DNA of 23,281 nt. Source: a virus. A program made the position numbers and the translations under genes. Location of the stretch: positions 1 through 23,281 of the IMG/VR virus record IMGVR_UViG_3300042261_002388; one strand, given 5' to 3'. The notes beneath the pieces were generated by a model that saw only the letters and a program-made list of their open reading frames with translations, made no database searches and was not told where the DNA came from. The first letter of the stretch is position 1, and each line of letters opens with the position of its first letter. Below are positions 13,242-22,624 of this stretch, one piece after another.

Positions 13242-13556
13242 ATGTCACCTCCAATCTTCGAAGCCCACGTGTGCGAGGCGCACGAGGATTTAATGCGATA
13301 TGTCATTGAAACTCGCAACGATGTTAAGCACCTAGTGAAGAGCATCGACGAGTTACACGAGCACGACAAGCAGTCACGCAAAGAGTGGGAAGCCCGAGAG
13401 GCAGCCGCACTTTCCCGCGTGTCCGCGCTTGAGAAGGTCAACGACGAGAAGATTGGAGAAGAAAGGATTGCAGGTAAATTCAGCGCGGCGGTGGCGTTCA
13501 TAGTCTCACTTGTTGTGAGCCTTGTCGCCGTCGCTGTAGCATGGATTGCAAAGTAG
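13242..13556 (+). CDS. Membrane-anchored coiled-coil protein (104 aa)
   Basis: Residues 15-75 are a long amphipathic or coiled-coil helix (RYVIETRNDVKHLVKSIDEL, later SALEKVNDEKIGEER), followed by one C-terminal membrane helix (about 83-102, VAFIVSLVVSLVAVAVAW). The layout resembles XhlA-type small lysis-associated proteins, but no holin partner is next to it. Ribosome site AAGGTGA (13229-13235). The location between connector and tail tube is one where a membrane protein is not expected. It may be involved in lysis, DNA injection or membrane association of assembly. Confidence 0.75.
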   Translation: MSPPIFEAHVCEAHEDLMRYVIETRNDVKHLVKSIDELHEHDKQSRKEWEAREAAALSRVSALEKVNDEKIGEERIAGKFSAAVAFIVSLVVSLVAVAVAWIAK

Positions 13557-13566
13557 AGGTTATCAC

Positions 13567-14316
13567 ATGACGAACCAAGCAAAAATTACCCAGGGCATGT
13601 ACATGATGTACAACGGCACAGTCTATGCCGAGCTCACTGATATCAGTGCGCCGCCCTTCAGCGTCGAGAAGGTAGACGCCACTTCCCACGACTCGACATA
13701 CAAAGTGTCAGTTCCGGGACAGGGGTCCTTCGGAGATATGACTTTCAAGGGATATTTCGTAAACGATACTGCCCAGGCCGCCCTTCGCGTTCTTGCTCTC
13801 GCGAAGACCACCGGAACCTGGAAGATTGTTTACCCCTCGACATTCGGAACGCTGGCATACAGCATCCCCGGATTCATCTCATCATACTCGGTAATTACCC
13901 CCATGAAGGGTGCACCGGCCACGTTCAGCGTGACCATCACTCCCACAGAGTCCGTTACCGAGGTAACCACTGCAGGCGCTGCTCTCACCACTCCCTTCTG
14001 GAGTATGGACGATGAGCACGGCACGGAAATCACTTCTCTGTTCACAACGCCCGCAGCAGCAACCTATACAATCGACGGCACTATTTACGCCGACAATACA
14101 GGGTTCACGCTTAAACCCACTGCAACCGCTGGCACCATCTACGTGGATGGAACTGTTGTTACAACTGGGAATGATTCCAGTCTGATTAGCATGCCCCTCG
14201 CATCCTACCCGTCTGGAAGCATTAAGACAACCTTTATCGTGGTTGACCAGGGCGCGTCATACGTCCCGAAGATTTATCGGTTCCGCATTACCCGTGGCAC
14301 TGCCAACCACCCATAA
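13567..14316 (+). CDS. Major tail (tube) protein with C-terminal Ig-like domain (249 aa)
   Basis: The tube-forming domain covers about residues 1-135 (KITQGMYMMYNGTVY at the start, later FGDMTFKGYFVNDTA and ATFSVTITPTE). The second half (about 145-245) resembles the cadherin-like beta-sandwich repeat (GTIYVDGTVVTTG, later SYVPKIYRFRITRG). Such Ig-like domains decorate the outside of many tails. AGAGGT (13553-13558) lies 8 nt before ATG 13567, which I choose over TTG 13546. It is directly followed by the tail assembly chaperone genes. Confidence 0.88.
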   Translation: MTNQAKITQGMYMMYNGTVYAELTDISAPPFSVEKVDATSHDSTYKVSVPGQGSFGDMTFKGYFVNDTAQAALRVLALAKTTGTWKIVYPSTFGTLAYSIPGFISSYSVITPMKGAPATFSVTITPTESVTEVTTAGAALTTPFWSMDDEHGTEITSLFTTPAAATYTIDGTIYADNTGFTLKPTATAGTIYVDGTVVTTGNDSSLISMPLASYPSGSIKTTFIVVDQGASYVPKIYRFRITRGTANHP

Positions 14317-14337: not shown

Positions 14338-14793
14338 ATGTCTAGAGAAAGCATGCCCATTAAACTGGGCGAAGAGATGTATCACCTGCGGTTCACTATC
14401 CGCGACGTGTGCAACTATGAATCGCGCTTCGGGTCAATCTATATGGGGATTGACATGAACAAGTTTGGGTTTGACATAGCGTCCAAACTACTCTGGACTG
14501 GTCTTAAAGACCAGCAGAAAGATGGGTCGTTGGTCCGACACTTTGAACCAAACGAAAAAGGCCTTGAAGATGCGCAGGAGTTTACGAAGAAGTTCATCGC
14601 GCAATTCAAAGGATTGGGGGGCATATCGACGTTATACGTCACAATAACTATGGGTATGGTGGTGTCGGGTTGGATAACTTTACCAGAGCCACAGAACACG
14701 GATAAAACGCCCGCAAAACAGGGGGATGATACCCCAAACCCAAAACCGTCTCGGAAACGCTCACCGAGAAAGAAACCCAACGTAACATCCTGA
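14338..14793 (+). CDS. Tail assembly chaperone, short form (gpG-like, 151 aa)
   Basis: Located between tube and tape measure genes, as with lambda gpG. The start has a strong ribosome site, AAAGGAG. Residues 1-115 form the folded part (KLGEEMYHLRFTIRDVCNYE, later FIAQFKGLGGISTLYV). The end is a Pro/Lys/Arg-rich tail (KPSRKRSPRKKPN) made only when ribosomes do not shift. The chaperone coats the tape measure and recruits tube protein; the shifted form is described separately. No sequence identity with lambda gpG is claimed; the role rests on place and the frameshift. Confidence 0.85.
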   Translation: MSRESMPIKLGEEMYHLRFTIRDVCNYESRFGSIYMGIDMNKFGFDIASKLLWTGLKDQQKDGSLVRHFEPNEKGLEDAQEFTKKFIAQFKGLGGISTLYVTITMGMVVSGWITLPEPQNTDKTPAKQGDDTPNPKPSRKRSPRKKPNVTS

Positions 14794-15146
14794 AATCAAC
14801 AGGATGGACCCTCGATGAATTCTGGAAGGCCACCCACGCGGAGATAGAGGTCTGCGCTGGCATACAGAACGAGACCAACTTTGAGCAACTCAAATTGCTC
14901 GATTACATGTTCGCCAGTATTGGGCACAAGATTGTATCCGTTACCGGTGCAAAGGTAAAACTTGTTGATTGCCTCGTACTTAATCATGGTGGCGCCGACG
15001 GGACGGGCCATGGTTACAAGTATGGGCCAGGAGACACTCTGGTATCGGAAGAGCCAGGGTCTGAAGAAGAACTAATCGAACAAACAGCGCGTCTACAGGA
15101 AATGAAGAACAAGATGCGCGGATTCATAGGAGGGTCGAATGGCTGA
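14730..15146 (+). CDS. Tail assembly chaperone, -1 frameshift extension (gpT-like)
   Basis: Reading frame -1 relative to the 14338 gene is open from 14730, after a stop at 14727, and has no good start near its beginning. Its protein is clearly real (KSTGWTLDEFWKATHAEIEV, later GYKYGPGDTLVSEEPG), matching tail chaperone C-terminal parts. By a -1 shift at 14733-14745 it is joined to the first 136 codons of the upstream gene, giving a 269-aa protein. A later TTG (14895) is an unlikely start because conserved residues lie before it. It overlaps the tape measure start by 8 bp. Confidence 0.86.
   Translation, partial: YPKPKTVSETLTEKETQRNILKSTGWTLDEFWKATHAEIEVCAGIQNETNFEQLKLLDYMFASIGHKIVSVTGAKVKLVDCLVLNHGGADGTGHGYKYGPGDTLVSEEPGSEEELIEQTARLQEMKNKMRGFIGGSNG
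14733..14769 (+). promoter_or_regulatory. Programmed -1 frameshift signal with tandem slippery sites
   Basis: Two in-register heptamers share one base: C CCA AAC (14733-14739) and C CCA AAA (14739-14745). Zero-frame codons are CCA AAC CCA AAA. Slipping at either gives the same protein (TPNPKTV). Nine and three nt after the two sites is a perfect 6-bp stem (TCTCGG 14749-14754 with CCGAGA 14764-14769, 9-nt loop), which can act as a stimulator. Confidence 0.85.
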
Positions 15147-16497
15147 AGAAATGCAATACATGGCCAAATTAGGCATAGACGATGCCGACTTTCTTAAGGC
15201 ACTCACCGACATGGAAGGTGCCTTTAAGAGTTTCGTAACAGGGTCTACACTTGGGTTGGCAGCCGTTGGAACAGCGGCAATCGCGGCAACAGAACATCTA
15301 ATAGCGATGTCCAGGGCCGCAGAAGATATGATGGAATTATCCGAAGTTATTAACGTCAATGTTCAAGACCTTCAGAAGTTCCAGTATGCAGCAAAACTTG
15401 CTGGGGAAGAGGCCAACGCCTACGATAGCATGTTGGCAAAAATGGTACTCTCGGCTTCGCAGGCTTCAGACGCAACAAGCAAGCAGGCGGAAGCGTTCAG
15501 GAAGTTGGGGGTTGACCCAAGCGGTAAGTCGACATCTGAACTCTTTATCGATATTGCGGAGGCATTGAAAGGTGTAGACGATGCACAGACGAAAGCGGAA
15601 ATCTCGTCTGTGTTACTCGGCAAGTCGTGGGTCGAGGCAAATAAGTTAACTAACAACTACGTAGAGAACCTCGATAAGATTGAGAAACAGACTTACCTCA
15701 CGAACGAACAGGTGATGAAGCTCAACGAATCTAACGAGAAGATGAACGAGCGCTGGGCAAAACTTTCTAGCTATACAGACCGTGCCACAATGGCCGTCTT
15801 TGAAGTTACAGATGCTTTGAGTTTTCAGGCACGTGGCCTCGAATGGGTTATGGGTCTATGGGACCAGTACACTAGTAAGGCCGCTGCTGTTAGTGGAGCA
15901 ACGAAAACCGAGACGGCGTATAACCGTGATGCCGAAGCTCTTGTCGCGCAGATGTCCGTAGCTGACAAGGCTGGGAAAGCAGAGCAGTTGAAATACCTCA
16001 ATGACGAGTACAACGCGGGGAACCTCACTGCCGAACAGTATAACGCAAAACGGCTCGAACTGACAGGTGTTAAGGACGCCATGGTTGGCGGTAAGGTCGC
16101 CGACATACTCATGGGCCAGTCTTTCGGTTTTGACCAGAGTAGCCAGTCTGGTTACTACGCATCTGGCGTTAATGGCAGCATGGGTGTCAATGCTTCACCC
16201 ACGCAGGCAAACGCGTATCAGTTACAAGTTGCCGAAGGGCTTTACCAGAAATACTACGACCAACTCACTGGAGACAAATGGGGCCAGCAGGCTTACCGTA
16301 GCGAGATTGCCAGGCAGCTTGCATATAACGAGGCAGCCTCTGGCTACAAGTCACAGGATGAGGCGTGGGCTGCTGTTGGCTATAAGCAAGGGACCAATAT
16401 TACCATTATCAACTACAACAGCGGCAATGCCAGCCCAGAGGAGATTGCAAACGCGTCCGCGGAGAAAATGTCGCGCATTATTGCTGGAGGTGTCTGA
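15139..16497 (+). CDS. Tape measure protein (452 aa)
   Basis: Determines tail length and is largely helical. A hydrophobic stretch lies at about 36-58 (TLGLAAVGTAAIAATEHLIAM), and the central region holds long helices. It follows the chaperone genes directly (8-bp overlap, AGGAGGGT ribosome site). At 452 residues it is short; using the usual rule of about 1.5 A per residue, the tail would be near 68 nm (inference). Pattern VNVQDLQKFQYAAKLAG (74-90) is typical of tape measure N-terminal parts. The end has no lysozyme or peptidase domain that I can see. Confidence 0.9.
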   Translation: MAEEMQYMAKLGIDDADFLKALTDMEGAFKSFVTGSTLGLAAVGTAAIAATEHLIAMSRAAEDMMELSEVINVNVQDLQKFQYAAKLAGEEANAYDSMLAKMVLSASQASDATSKQAEAFRKLGVDPSGKSTSELFIDIAEALKGVDDAQTKAEISSVLLGKSWVEANKLTNNYVENLDKIEKQTYLTNEQVMKLNESNEKMNERWAKLSSYTDRATMAVFEVTDALSFQARGLEWVMGLWDQYTSKAAAVSGATKTETAYNRDAEALVAQMSVADKAGKAEQLKYLNDEYNAGNLTAEQYNAKRLELTGVKDAMVGGKVADILMGQSFGFDQSSQSGYYASGVNGSMGVNASPTQANAYQLQVAEGLYQKYYDQLTGDKWGQQAYRSEIARQLAYNEAASGYKSQDEAWAAVGYKQGTNITIINYNSGNASPEEIANASAEKMSRIIAGGV

Positions 16498-19809: not shown

Positions 19810-20646
19810 ATGACCGTCGATACGTTTTACTCTCCGGGGAACTGGGTGTGTCCCTCGGGAGTACAATACGTTGACATCGTAGTCCAAGGTGGCGGAGGCG
19901 GTGGCCGCGCAGGTATCGGTTCAAGTGGTACTGGTGGCGCTGGGGGGATTGGTGGAACAACAACCACCGTGGCTAAAGTAGCCGTAACCCCCGGTAACTC
20001 TTACTCCATCGTCATTGGATATGGTGGAAGCGGCGGGTCAGATGGTCCATCGCCCAATGGCACCAATGGTGGCAGCAGCACCGCACTCGGTTACACAGGC
20101 GCAGGCGGTGCGGGTGCCACAGATATCAGCGGCACGGCTTACGGCAATGACGGCACGGGCACTGGCCACGGAACAGGGGGGTCGCCTCCGGGTGGCTCGG
20201 GCACTAGCGCCACTGGCTACAATGGTGGCGGTGGTGGTGGAGGTGCGGCCTACTTCACAGGTAGCGGAATTGGTGGCAATGGGGGTAACGGTGCACAGGG
20301 GAAGGTAACGATTACTTACGTGCTTCCAACCGTTGCCTTTAGCGGTTCTGGAACAGGTTCCACAGACCCACCTGCAGGCTCTAAACCTATGACGGTTACG
20401 TGGACCAACAACACCACCAACGGAACCACATTCTCTTGGCTTTTCCCAGGCGCTGGAACAACATCACAGAATATCGAGGACCCCGTAGATTCGGTATATT
20501 CCACATCTGGGTCGTACGACGTAACTCTTTACGCGTATAACGCATACGGCTGGTCCGCTCTTGTAAAGTCTGGCTACGTCACGGTTTACGGCGTCCCGTT
20601 CAACCAGTGTTGCATAATCGGGTCTGACCATCACAGAGGGAGGTAA
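19810..20646 (+). CDS. Glycine-rich adhesin-like protein with PKD domain (278 aa)
   Basis: Residues 1-26 and 46-71 are beta strands around a polyglycine region (VVQGGGGGGRAG), followed by Gly/Ser/Thr-rich sequence to about 163 (YNGGGGGGGAAYF) and a closing strand (GAQGKVTITYV). This layout resembles viral adhesins with polyglycine-II helices, such as phage S16 gp38. Residues 172-260 look like a PKD domain (FSWLFPGAG, then GSYDVTLYAYNAYG), a fold common in archaeal surface proteins. The end has a C-C pair. Likely role: binding the host surface or the fibre. Confidence 0.8.
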   Translation: MTVDTFYSPGNWVCPSGVQYVDIVVQGGGGGGRAGIGSSGTGGAGGIGGTTTTVAKVAVTPGNSYSIVIGYGGSGGSDGPSPNGTNGGSSTALGYTGAGGAGATDISGTAYGNDGTGTGHGTGGSPPGGSGTSATGYNGGGGGGGAAYFTGSGIGGNGGNGAQGKVTITYVLPTVAFSGSGTGSTDPPAGSKPMTVTWTNNTTNGTTFSWLFPGAGTTSQNIEDPVDSVYSTSGSYDVTLYAYNAYGWSALVKSGYVTVYGVPFNQCCIIGSDHHRGR

Positions 20647-21769: not shown

Positions 21770-22624
21770 ATGGTAACCAAAAATCCAGACACGACAGACA
21801 CGACAACGGTTCCAGGGTCTACCATTTATATATGGACAACCACTGGCACTGGTGATTGGACTGTTCCCGCTGGAGTGACATCGGTTGATTACCTGGTCGT
21901 CGGTGCAGGTGGTGGGGGTGGGGGTTACACCGCAGGTGGTGGGGGTGGTGGGCAAGTTCGAACCGGCACACTGACCGGACTCACGCCGTCCTCTACTGTT
22001 ACTGTAACTGTTGGCACTGGTGGCACTGGCGGTAAGCAAAGCACCTCGACAATAGCTACTGACGGTGGCGACTCCACTTTTAGCACCATAACCTCCGACG
22101 GTGGCAGCAAGGGCGGCAGTTTTATTTCCGGAAACTTCGCAGGTGGAGGTGGCACAATCGGTGGTGGCTCGTCCTATACTGCTGCTGGTGGCGACGGTTC
22201 ATTGTATGATGGTGGTGCCGGTTCCGGTGGCGGGGAACAGGGTGGAGGTGGCGCTGGTGCTGGTGCCAACGGTACTGCAGGTAACGTTACTCGTTCAGCC
22301 GGACAGGGTGGAGCCGGTGTCTCTAGCACTATCACGGGGTCTTCCGTGGGTTACGGTGGAGGTGGCGGCGGTAGCACTGCTGCCACCGCTTTCATCGGAA
22401 CCGGTGGGCAGGCTGCCTCTGGATACGGTGGTGGTAACGGCTCTGATTCTACCACTGGTGGCGCGGGAACTGCCAACACTGGTGGTGGTGGCGGGGGTTC
22501 CGGTTCAATTACAACTTTTGGTGGCGCCGGTGGCTCAGGTATCGTTGTAATCAGATACACTTCCGATACAAATCAAACGGCTGGAGTTTCACTTGCCTCT
22601 GCCAATATGTGTTGGGTGGAGTAA
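21770..22624 (+). CDS. Glycine-rich adhesin-like protein (284 aa)
   Basis: Begins with a short Thr-rich stretch (PDTTDTTTVPGST), then a beta start (IYIWTTTGTGDWTVPAGVTSV), then polyglycine runs (GAGGGGGGYTAGGGGGGQ) repeated several times, and closes with a conserved strand (GGSGIVVIRY). This is the same plan as the glycine-rich part of the 19810 gene but without PKD. The polyglycine-II layout is that of adhesin tips on phage fibres. It is the last + strand gene; codons are GGT/GGC-rich, so DNA repeats are frequent and slippage could vary the runs. Confidence 0.82.
   Translation: MVTKNPDTTDTTTVPGSTIYIWTTTGTGDWTVPAGVTSVDYLVVGAGGGGGGYTAGGGGGGQVRTGTLTGLTPSSTVTVTVGTGGTGGKQSTSTIATDGGDSTFSTITSDGGSKGGSFISGNFAGGGGTIGGGSSYTAAGGDGSLYDGGAGSGGGEQGGGGAGAGANGTAGNVTRSAGQGGAGVSSTITGSSVGYGGGGGGSTAATAFIGTGGQAASGYGGGNGSDSTTGGAGTANTGGGGGGSGSITTFGGAGGSGIVVIRYTSDTNQTAGVSLASANMCWVE

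What the first reader, a model, noticed from the sequence alone, without database searches (positions are those of the whole stretch)
14733..14769. Tandem, product-neutral slippery sites and a stem-loop drive a -1 frameshift in tail chaperone genes
Seen: two overlapping heptamers, C CCA AAC and C CCA AAA, both in the correct register. A -1 slip at either gives exactly the same junction (TPNPKTV), so the signal is doubled without changing the protein. A perfect 6-bp stem-loop begins 9 nt after the first and 3 nt after the second. The -1 frame has no own start near its beginning and encodes a convincing chaperone C-terminus. Known: frameshifting between gpG and gpGT is common in tailed phages. 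A doubled neutral site, perhaps in an archaeal virus, is to my knowledge not a standard feature.
Basis: partly seen in the sequence, partly recalled or inferred. Interest (0 to 1): 0.82.

Follow-up and report, generated by a model that had tools for sequence, protein, structure and literature searches.

The report
Tail chaperone frameshift with doubled slippery site
This tailed virus, probably one that infects archaea, very likely makes its long tail-assembly helper protein by the well-known trick of a ribosome slipping back one base; the slip site happens to be doubled, but related viruses manage with one, so the doubling looks like a small local variation.

Summary
Gene G (14338-14793) contains ACC CCA AAC CCA AAA, with C_CCA_AAC (14733-14739) and C_CCA_AAA (14739-14745) both in register and a weaker in-frame A_AAC_CCA between them. 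A -1 slip at any of them gives the same 269-aa G-T fusion. A programmed -1 frameshift between tail chaperones is strongly supported: homologues of G with a -1-frame T occur in two related viral genomes (L106, L108) with the same gene order, their T evolves under selection in the -1 frame, and more distant phrog_2115 phages show the same layout. The doubled site is not conserved: L106 and L108 share a single A_AAA_AAC at the corresponding place, and a Syntrophomonadaceae phage has one CCCAAAC. The 6-bp hairpin was not seen after the relatives' sites; a Shine-Dalgarno-like stretch upstream recurs. Product neutrality is automatic, because CCCAAAA reads Pro-Lys in both frames, and once one site exists a second arises in 11% of synonymous resamplings. 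-1 frameshifting in archaeal tailed viruses is already published. I rate it a new member of a known kind with a mildly unusual doubled site.

The parts
14338..14793 (+). gene G: tail assembly chaperone, short product (151 aa)
   Evidence: phrog_2115 'tail protein' E 1.3e-6; BLASTP 1e-15 to L090/L106 G; lies between major tail protein and tape measure gene
14720..14726 (+). Shine-Dalgarno-like stretch AGGGGGA, 6 nt before the first heptamer and 12 nt before the second
   Evidence: anti-SD duplex -8.9 kcal/mol; 4.75% of random window positions reach -7.5; relatives L106/L108 have -8.0 at 13 and 10 nt; a role is inferred
14733..14739 (+). slippery heptamer 1, C_CCA_AAC
   Evidence: in frame; 9 nt before the hairpin; same heptamer at the end of G in L053/L057
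14736..14742 (+). overlapping in-frame heptamer A_AAC_CCA (weak, Y = C)
   Evidence: a slip here gives the same product (direct reading)
14739..14745 (+). slippery heptamer 2, C_CCA_AAA
   Evidence: in frame, same fusion product; 3 nt before the hairpin
14749..14769 (+). hairpin TCTCGG-(9 nt)-CCGAGA, possible stimulator
   Evidence: -7.6 kcal/mol, z about -1.6; no equivalent seen in relatives
14786..14806 (+). second hairpin CATCCTG-(7 nt)-CAGGATG across the G stop codon
   Evidence: role unknown
14745..15146 (+). T region in the -1 frame (133 aa after the junction); with G gives a 269-aa GT fusion
   Evidence: open 14730-15146, no ATG/GTG/TTG before 14895; short shared motif with T of relatives
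15139..16497 (+). tape measure protein gene, directly downstream
   Evidence: phrog_9483 and phrog_8462 tape measure, E about 1e-11
13546..14316 (+). major tail protein gene, directly upstream
   Evidence: phrog_158 E 3.8e-12

Best explanation
G and T are the tail assembly chaperone pair of a tailed virus. Most ribosomes finish G. A minority slip back one base in the run CCC-AAA-CCC-AAA-A, where every codon (CCA AAC CCA AAA) can re-pair one base back as CCC AAA CCC AAA, and go on to make the G-T fusion needed to load the tail tube onto the tape measure. Shown: sequence, register, open -1 frame, homology of G, gene order, and the same arrangement with coding selection on T in relatives. Inferred: that slippage occurs, its rate, and what stimulates it. 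The doublet is most likely a local hexamer duplication that may raise the slip rate modestly; it is not required in the family.
For: Site and frames. G in phrog_2115 and homologous to G of L090/L106/L108, which have the same order MTP-G-T-TMP and an in-frame A_AAA_AAC with T in -1. T of L106 versus L108: 9 of 12 differences at third positions, 8 synonymous versus 2 non-synonymous codons in the -1 frame, 1 versus 10 in the 0 frame. More distant phrog_2115 relatives: 11 of 17 loci scanned (not all independent) carry an in-frame X_XXY_YYZ (Y = A/T) heptamer in an overlap with a -1 ORF. Paenibacillus phages Bob and LincolnB are annotated with a joined 'tail assembly chaperone' / 'tail assembly protein'. 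Lambda-type mechanism and archaeal virus cases: PMC5009743, PMC7911831.
Against: No protein or ribosome profiling data. The window's T is only weakly similar to T of relatives (one 18-residue motif, hhalign E 0.0065, probability 6%; no BLAST match to the partial L090 T). The predicted G model finds no chaperone structure in the PDB. The near-identical sister contig has no substitutions in this region, so selection on T cannot be tested in the window's own species.
Confidence: 0.88

Rival explanations
1. The doublet is a selected dual-site cassette: heptamer 1 is served by the hairpin 9 nt downstream and heptamer 2 by the Shine-Dalgarno-like stretch 12 nt upstream, so that the total GT yield is raised while the protein stays the same.
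For: Hairpin spacing fits the published 5-9 nt range for heptamer 1 only (PMC8211752); Shine-Dalgarno-like spacing of 12 nt for heptamer 2 lies within the 10-13 nt of relatives L106/L108. Two in-frame sites occur in only 3.6% of synonymous resamplings. L063 carries overlapping CCCAAAA/AAAAAAC in frame.
Against: Not conserved in L106, L108 or L053/L057; a second site given a first is expected in 11%. L106's extra upstream site is absent from L108, as expected of incidental sites. L057 has a Shine-Dalgarno-like stretch at 6 nt, so spacing does not single out heptamer 2.
Confidence: 0.2
2. T is translated separately by re-initiation after the G stop, not by frameshifting.
For: T contains ATG 14907 and TTG 14895; a hairpin spans the G stop.
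Against: These starts lie 100 nt or more past the G stop and after the motif shared with relatives' T; relatives keep a slippery heptamer in frame.
Confidence: 0.05
3. RNA polymerase slippage rather than ribosomal frameshifting makes the fusion.
For: Relatives have runs of 6-7 A.
Against: The window's site has no homopolymer longer than 4; slippage on a CCCAAA repeat would move by 6, which keeps the frame.
Confidence: 0.02
4. Assembly or sequencing error split one gene.
For: Metagenomic contig.
Against: Sister contig identical over this region; the same split in independent relatives.
Confidence: 0.01

Closest known systems
Lambda gpG/gpGT -1 frameshift and its conserved counterparts in dsDNA phage tail genes (Xu, Hendrix and Duda 2004, as described in PMC5009743)
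   Same: Gene order major tail protein - G - T (-1) - tape measure; heptamer near the end of G; T without its own early start
   Different: Lambda uses a single G_GGA_AAG site (own knowledge); here C_CCA_AAC and C_CCA_AAA overlap in tandem
Archaeal tailed virus chaperone frameshifts: HCTV-1, -2, -5, HVTV-1 (PMC5009743) and Hardycor1 (PMC7911831)
   Same: -1 frameshift of the same pair in archaeal viruses, including AAC-ending heptamers
   Different: Haloarchaeal hosts, single sites reported; the window's host is probably a methanogen
phrog_2115 tail chaperones: Paenibacillus phage Bob (OP503972), Syntrophomonadaceae phage IMGVR 15540650 (PV036453)
   Same: Same G family and -1 T; PV036453 has CCCAAAC at the very end of G
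   Different: One in-frame heptamer only; shorter G tail
Viral contigs L106/L108 (IMGVR_UViG_3300035659_001054 and IMGVR_UViG_3300037339_000175)
   Same: Closest relatives with complete G and T; same gene order
   Different: A_AAA_AAC in place of the CCCAAA doublet; no matching hairpin after it

Membership tests
Frameshifted tail assembly chaperone pair (G/GT) | G homologous to a known tail chaperone family | tested here: met
   phrog_2115 E 1.3e-6; hhalign to the family 91%, E 9e-7; family members annotated as joined tail assembly chaperones
Frameshifted tail assembly chaperone pair (G/GT) | Position between the major tail protein and tape measure genes | tested here: met
Frameshifted tail assembly chaperone pair (G/GT) | In-frame X_XXY_YYZ in the G/T overlap | tested here: met
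Frameshifted tail assembly chaperone pair (G/GT) | T under coding selection in the -1 frame | tested here: met
   met in relatives L106/L108; not testable in the window's own species because the sister contig is identical here
Frameshifted tail assembly chaperone pair (G/GT) | T of the window homologous to known T domains | tested here: inconclusive
   only a short motif, GWTLDEFWKATHAEIE; Pfam Phage_tail_T E 0.032, below cut-off
Frameshifted tail assembly chaperone pair (G/GT) | Fusion protein made in cells at a set ratio | not testable with these tools
   needs mass spectrometry or a reporter
Conserved tandem (doubled) slippery cassette | Both heptamers kept in relatives | tested here: not met
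   L106, L108, L053/L057
Archaeal tailed virus | Closest relatives infect archaea | tested here: inconclusive
   for: among phage records MCP matches only haloarchaeal viruses, best Dit and Gp37 matches are Methanoculleus virus Blf4, the only TMP match is a Methanomicrobiales virus; against: MTP's only match is a Syntrophomonadaceae phage, terminase relatives are bacterial phages, and no direct host link was tested

The most novel reading that the evidence does not exclude
A tandem, product-neutral slippery run in an archaeal (probably methanogen) virus in which the two heptamers use different stimulators (upstream Shine-Dalgarno-like stretch and downstream hairpin) to set the G:GT ratio.
Probability: 0.15. 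Interest if true: 0.45.

Novelty: new member of a known kind. Interest (0 to 1): 0.25.

Why it matters
It adds a probably methanogen-infecting virus to the chaperone frameshift rule and gives a natural test case for whether two stacked, product-neutral slip sites add up, which is hard to test where the two products differ. It also shows that the slip site itself turns over (CCCAAA repeat versus AAAAAAC) while the frameshift is kept.

Tried and rejected
Direct searches with G, T and Gp37 in viral contigs gave only the 99.98% identical sister contig or nothing. Portal and terminase relatives either end before G (L034/L049: the contig stops inside the major tail protein) or have no -1 heptamer in the corresponding gene (L048/L087). 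vir524 (L051) has no in-frame -1 heptamer; its extension is in the +1 frame. BLv36 and HFTV1 regions were fetched but not analysed for G/T. The structure model of G (pLDDT 75) matched nothing informative in the PDB. Five literature searches with phrases such as 'tandem slippery', 'two slippery', 'second slippery' found no description of doubled sites in tail chaperones; the library lacks most subscription papers, so absence is weak evidence.

Full report
What is there. Gene G occupies 14338-14793, between the major tail protein (13546-14316, phrog_158) and the tape measure gene (15139-16497). Near its end it reads ACC CCA AAC CCA AAA CCG. Two in-frame heptamers, C_CCA_AAC (14733-14739) and C_CCA_AAA (14739-14745), lie in the 64-nt stretch where the -1 frame is open (14730-14793). 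Slipping at either gives the same 269-aa protein. Allowing Y = C there is a third in-frame heptamer, A_AAC_CCA at 14736, also with the same product. In effect the site is a 13-nt run, CCCAAA-CCCAAA-A, in which four consecutive codons can all re-pair one base back. Neutrality is built in: the second heptamer reads Pro-Lys in the 0 frame (CCA AAA) and Pro-Lys in the -1 frame (CCC AAA).

Is it more than chance? In-frame heptamers are rare in this genome (8 in 6983 codons; 0.018 expected in the overlap when these two are left out), so the presence of one just here is meaningful. The doubling is less so: holding the protein fixed and drawing synonymous codons from the window's usage gives a second site in 11% of the draws that have a first. 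The hairpin (14749-14769) is real but modest: -7.6 kcal/mol, z about -1.6; a perfect 6-bp stem starts 5-9 nt after 1.4% of positions in the window. A second hairpin across the G stop (14786-14806) makes the pair jointly unusual (z -3.2), but it begins 40 nt after the second heptamer and its role is unknown.

Relatives. The only near relative found directly is a contig 99.98% identical over 15.9 kb (3 mismatches), uninformative here. Working outwards through the capsid protein gave L090, and a two-sequence G profile then gave L106 and L108. These share MTP, G, TMP, gp10-like and (L106) Dit genes with the window. G of the window and of L090 align at 28% identity, E 1e-15. In L106 and L108, T lies in the -1 frame and the overlap has A_AAA_AAC at the corresponding place. 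L106 has a second in-frame A_AAA_AAA 27 nt upstream, which would give a different product and is missing from L108. T differs between the two at 8 synonymous and 2 non-synonymous codons in the -1 frame, against 1 and 10 if read in the 0 frame. So the frameshift is kept while the site is not. More distant phrog_2115 relatives mostly show single sites: CCCAAAC in Syntrophomonadaceae phage IMGVR 15540650, AAAAAAC in Paenibacillus phages annotated with joined tail chaperone genes, AAAAAAG, AAAAAAT or CCCTTTC in bacterial genomes, and one overlapping CCCAAAA/AAAAAAC (L063); 6 of the 17 loci scanned had none. Methanoculleus virus Blf4 has AAAAAAC with a -1 extension in the gene before its tape measure gene, not annotated as a frameshift.

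How it most likely works (inferred). A -1 slip of two tRNAs in the CCC/AAA run during translation of G. A Shine-Dalgarno-like AGGGGGA (anti-SD duplex -8.9 kcal/mol) sits 6 nt before heptamer 1 and 12 nt before heptamer 2; in L106/L108 the similar GAGGAGC sits 13 and 10 nt before the shared site. The hairpin sits 9 nt after heptamer 1 and 3 nt after heptamer 2; the published range for hairpins is 5-9 nt (PMC8211752). So heptamer 1 fits the hairpin better and heptamer 2 fits the upstream stretch better. Sequence alone cannot choose, and a shared role is possible but unproven.

Host. Among the phage records, the capsid protein matches only haloarchaeal viruses, the best Dit and Gp37 matches are to Methanoculleus virus Blf4, and the tape measure's only match is a Methanomicrobiales virus. 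The major tail protein's only match is a bacterial (Syntrophomonadaceae) phage, and the terminase matches bacterial phages.

Known or new. Chaperone frameshifting is standard in tailed phages and has been described in haloarchaeal viruses (PMC5009743; PMC7911831). The first of these reviews also lists C_CCA_AAG as shift-prone in E. coli. I found no published doubled site in these genes, in an open-access library only. The doublet is a real but small local variation.

Noticed in passing
   Followed up: partly
L052:3616-4219 (Methanoculleus virus Blf4, MZ171369): The gene before the tape measure gene ends with an in-frame A_AAA_AAC and a long -1 extension; the record annotates only separate hypothetical proteins, so a chaperone frameshift is probably missed there.
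   Followed up: partly
L051:11129-11800 (Caudoviricetes vir524, BK063669): The corresponding gene has no -1 heptamer; a plausible extension is in the +1 frame after ...GKVPP, as in the +1 case reported for HSTV-2.
   Followed up: partly
L063:2779-2788: Overlapping in-frame CCCAAAA and AAAAAAC (CCCAAAAAAC) at the end of G in a Clostridium metagenome contig; the two slips differ by one residue (K or N).
   Followed up: partly
L096, L097, L098 (e.g. L098:3993-4415): A 141-aa ORF after the capsid gene ends with in-frame GGGAAAC, followed by a -1 frame of about 725-750 codons; may be simple gene overlap.
   Followed up: no
L088:5483-6336: The major tail protein query matches twice in tandem, suggesting a duplicated tail tube gene.
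   Followed up: no
L047:12825-13868 (same contig as L049): The major tail protein homologue carries a long Pro-Thr-Pro repeat and an extra C-terminal domain that the window's protein lacks.
   Followed up: no
19810-20646 and 21770-22624: Two late proteins with long glycine-rich stretches, possibly tail fibre or receptor-binding parts.
   Followed up: no
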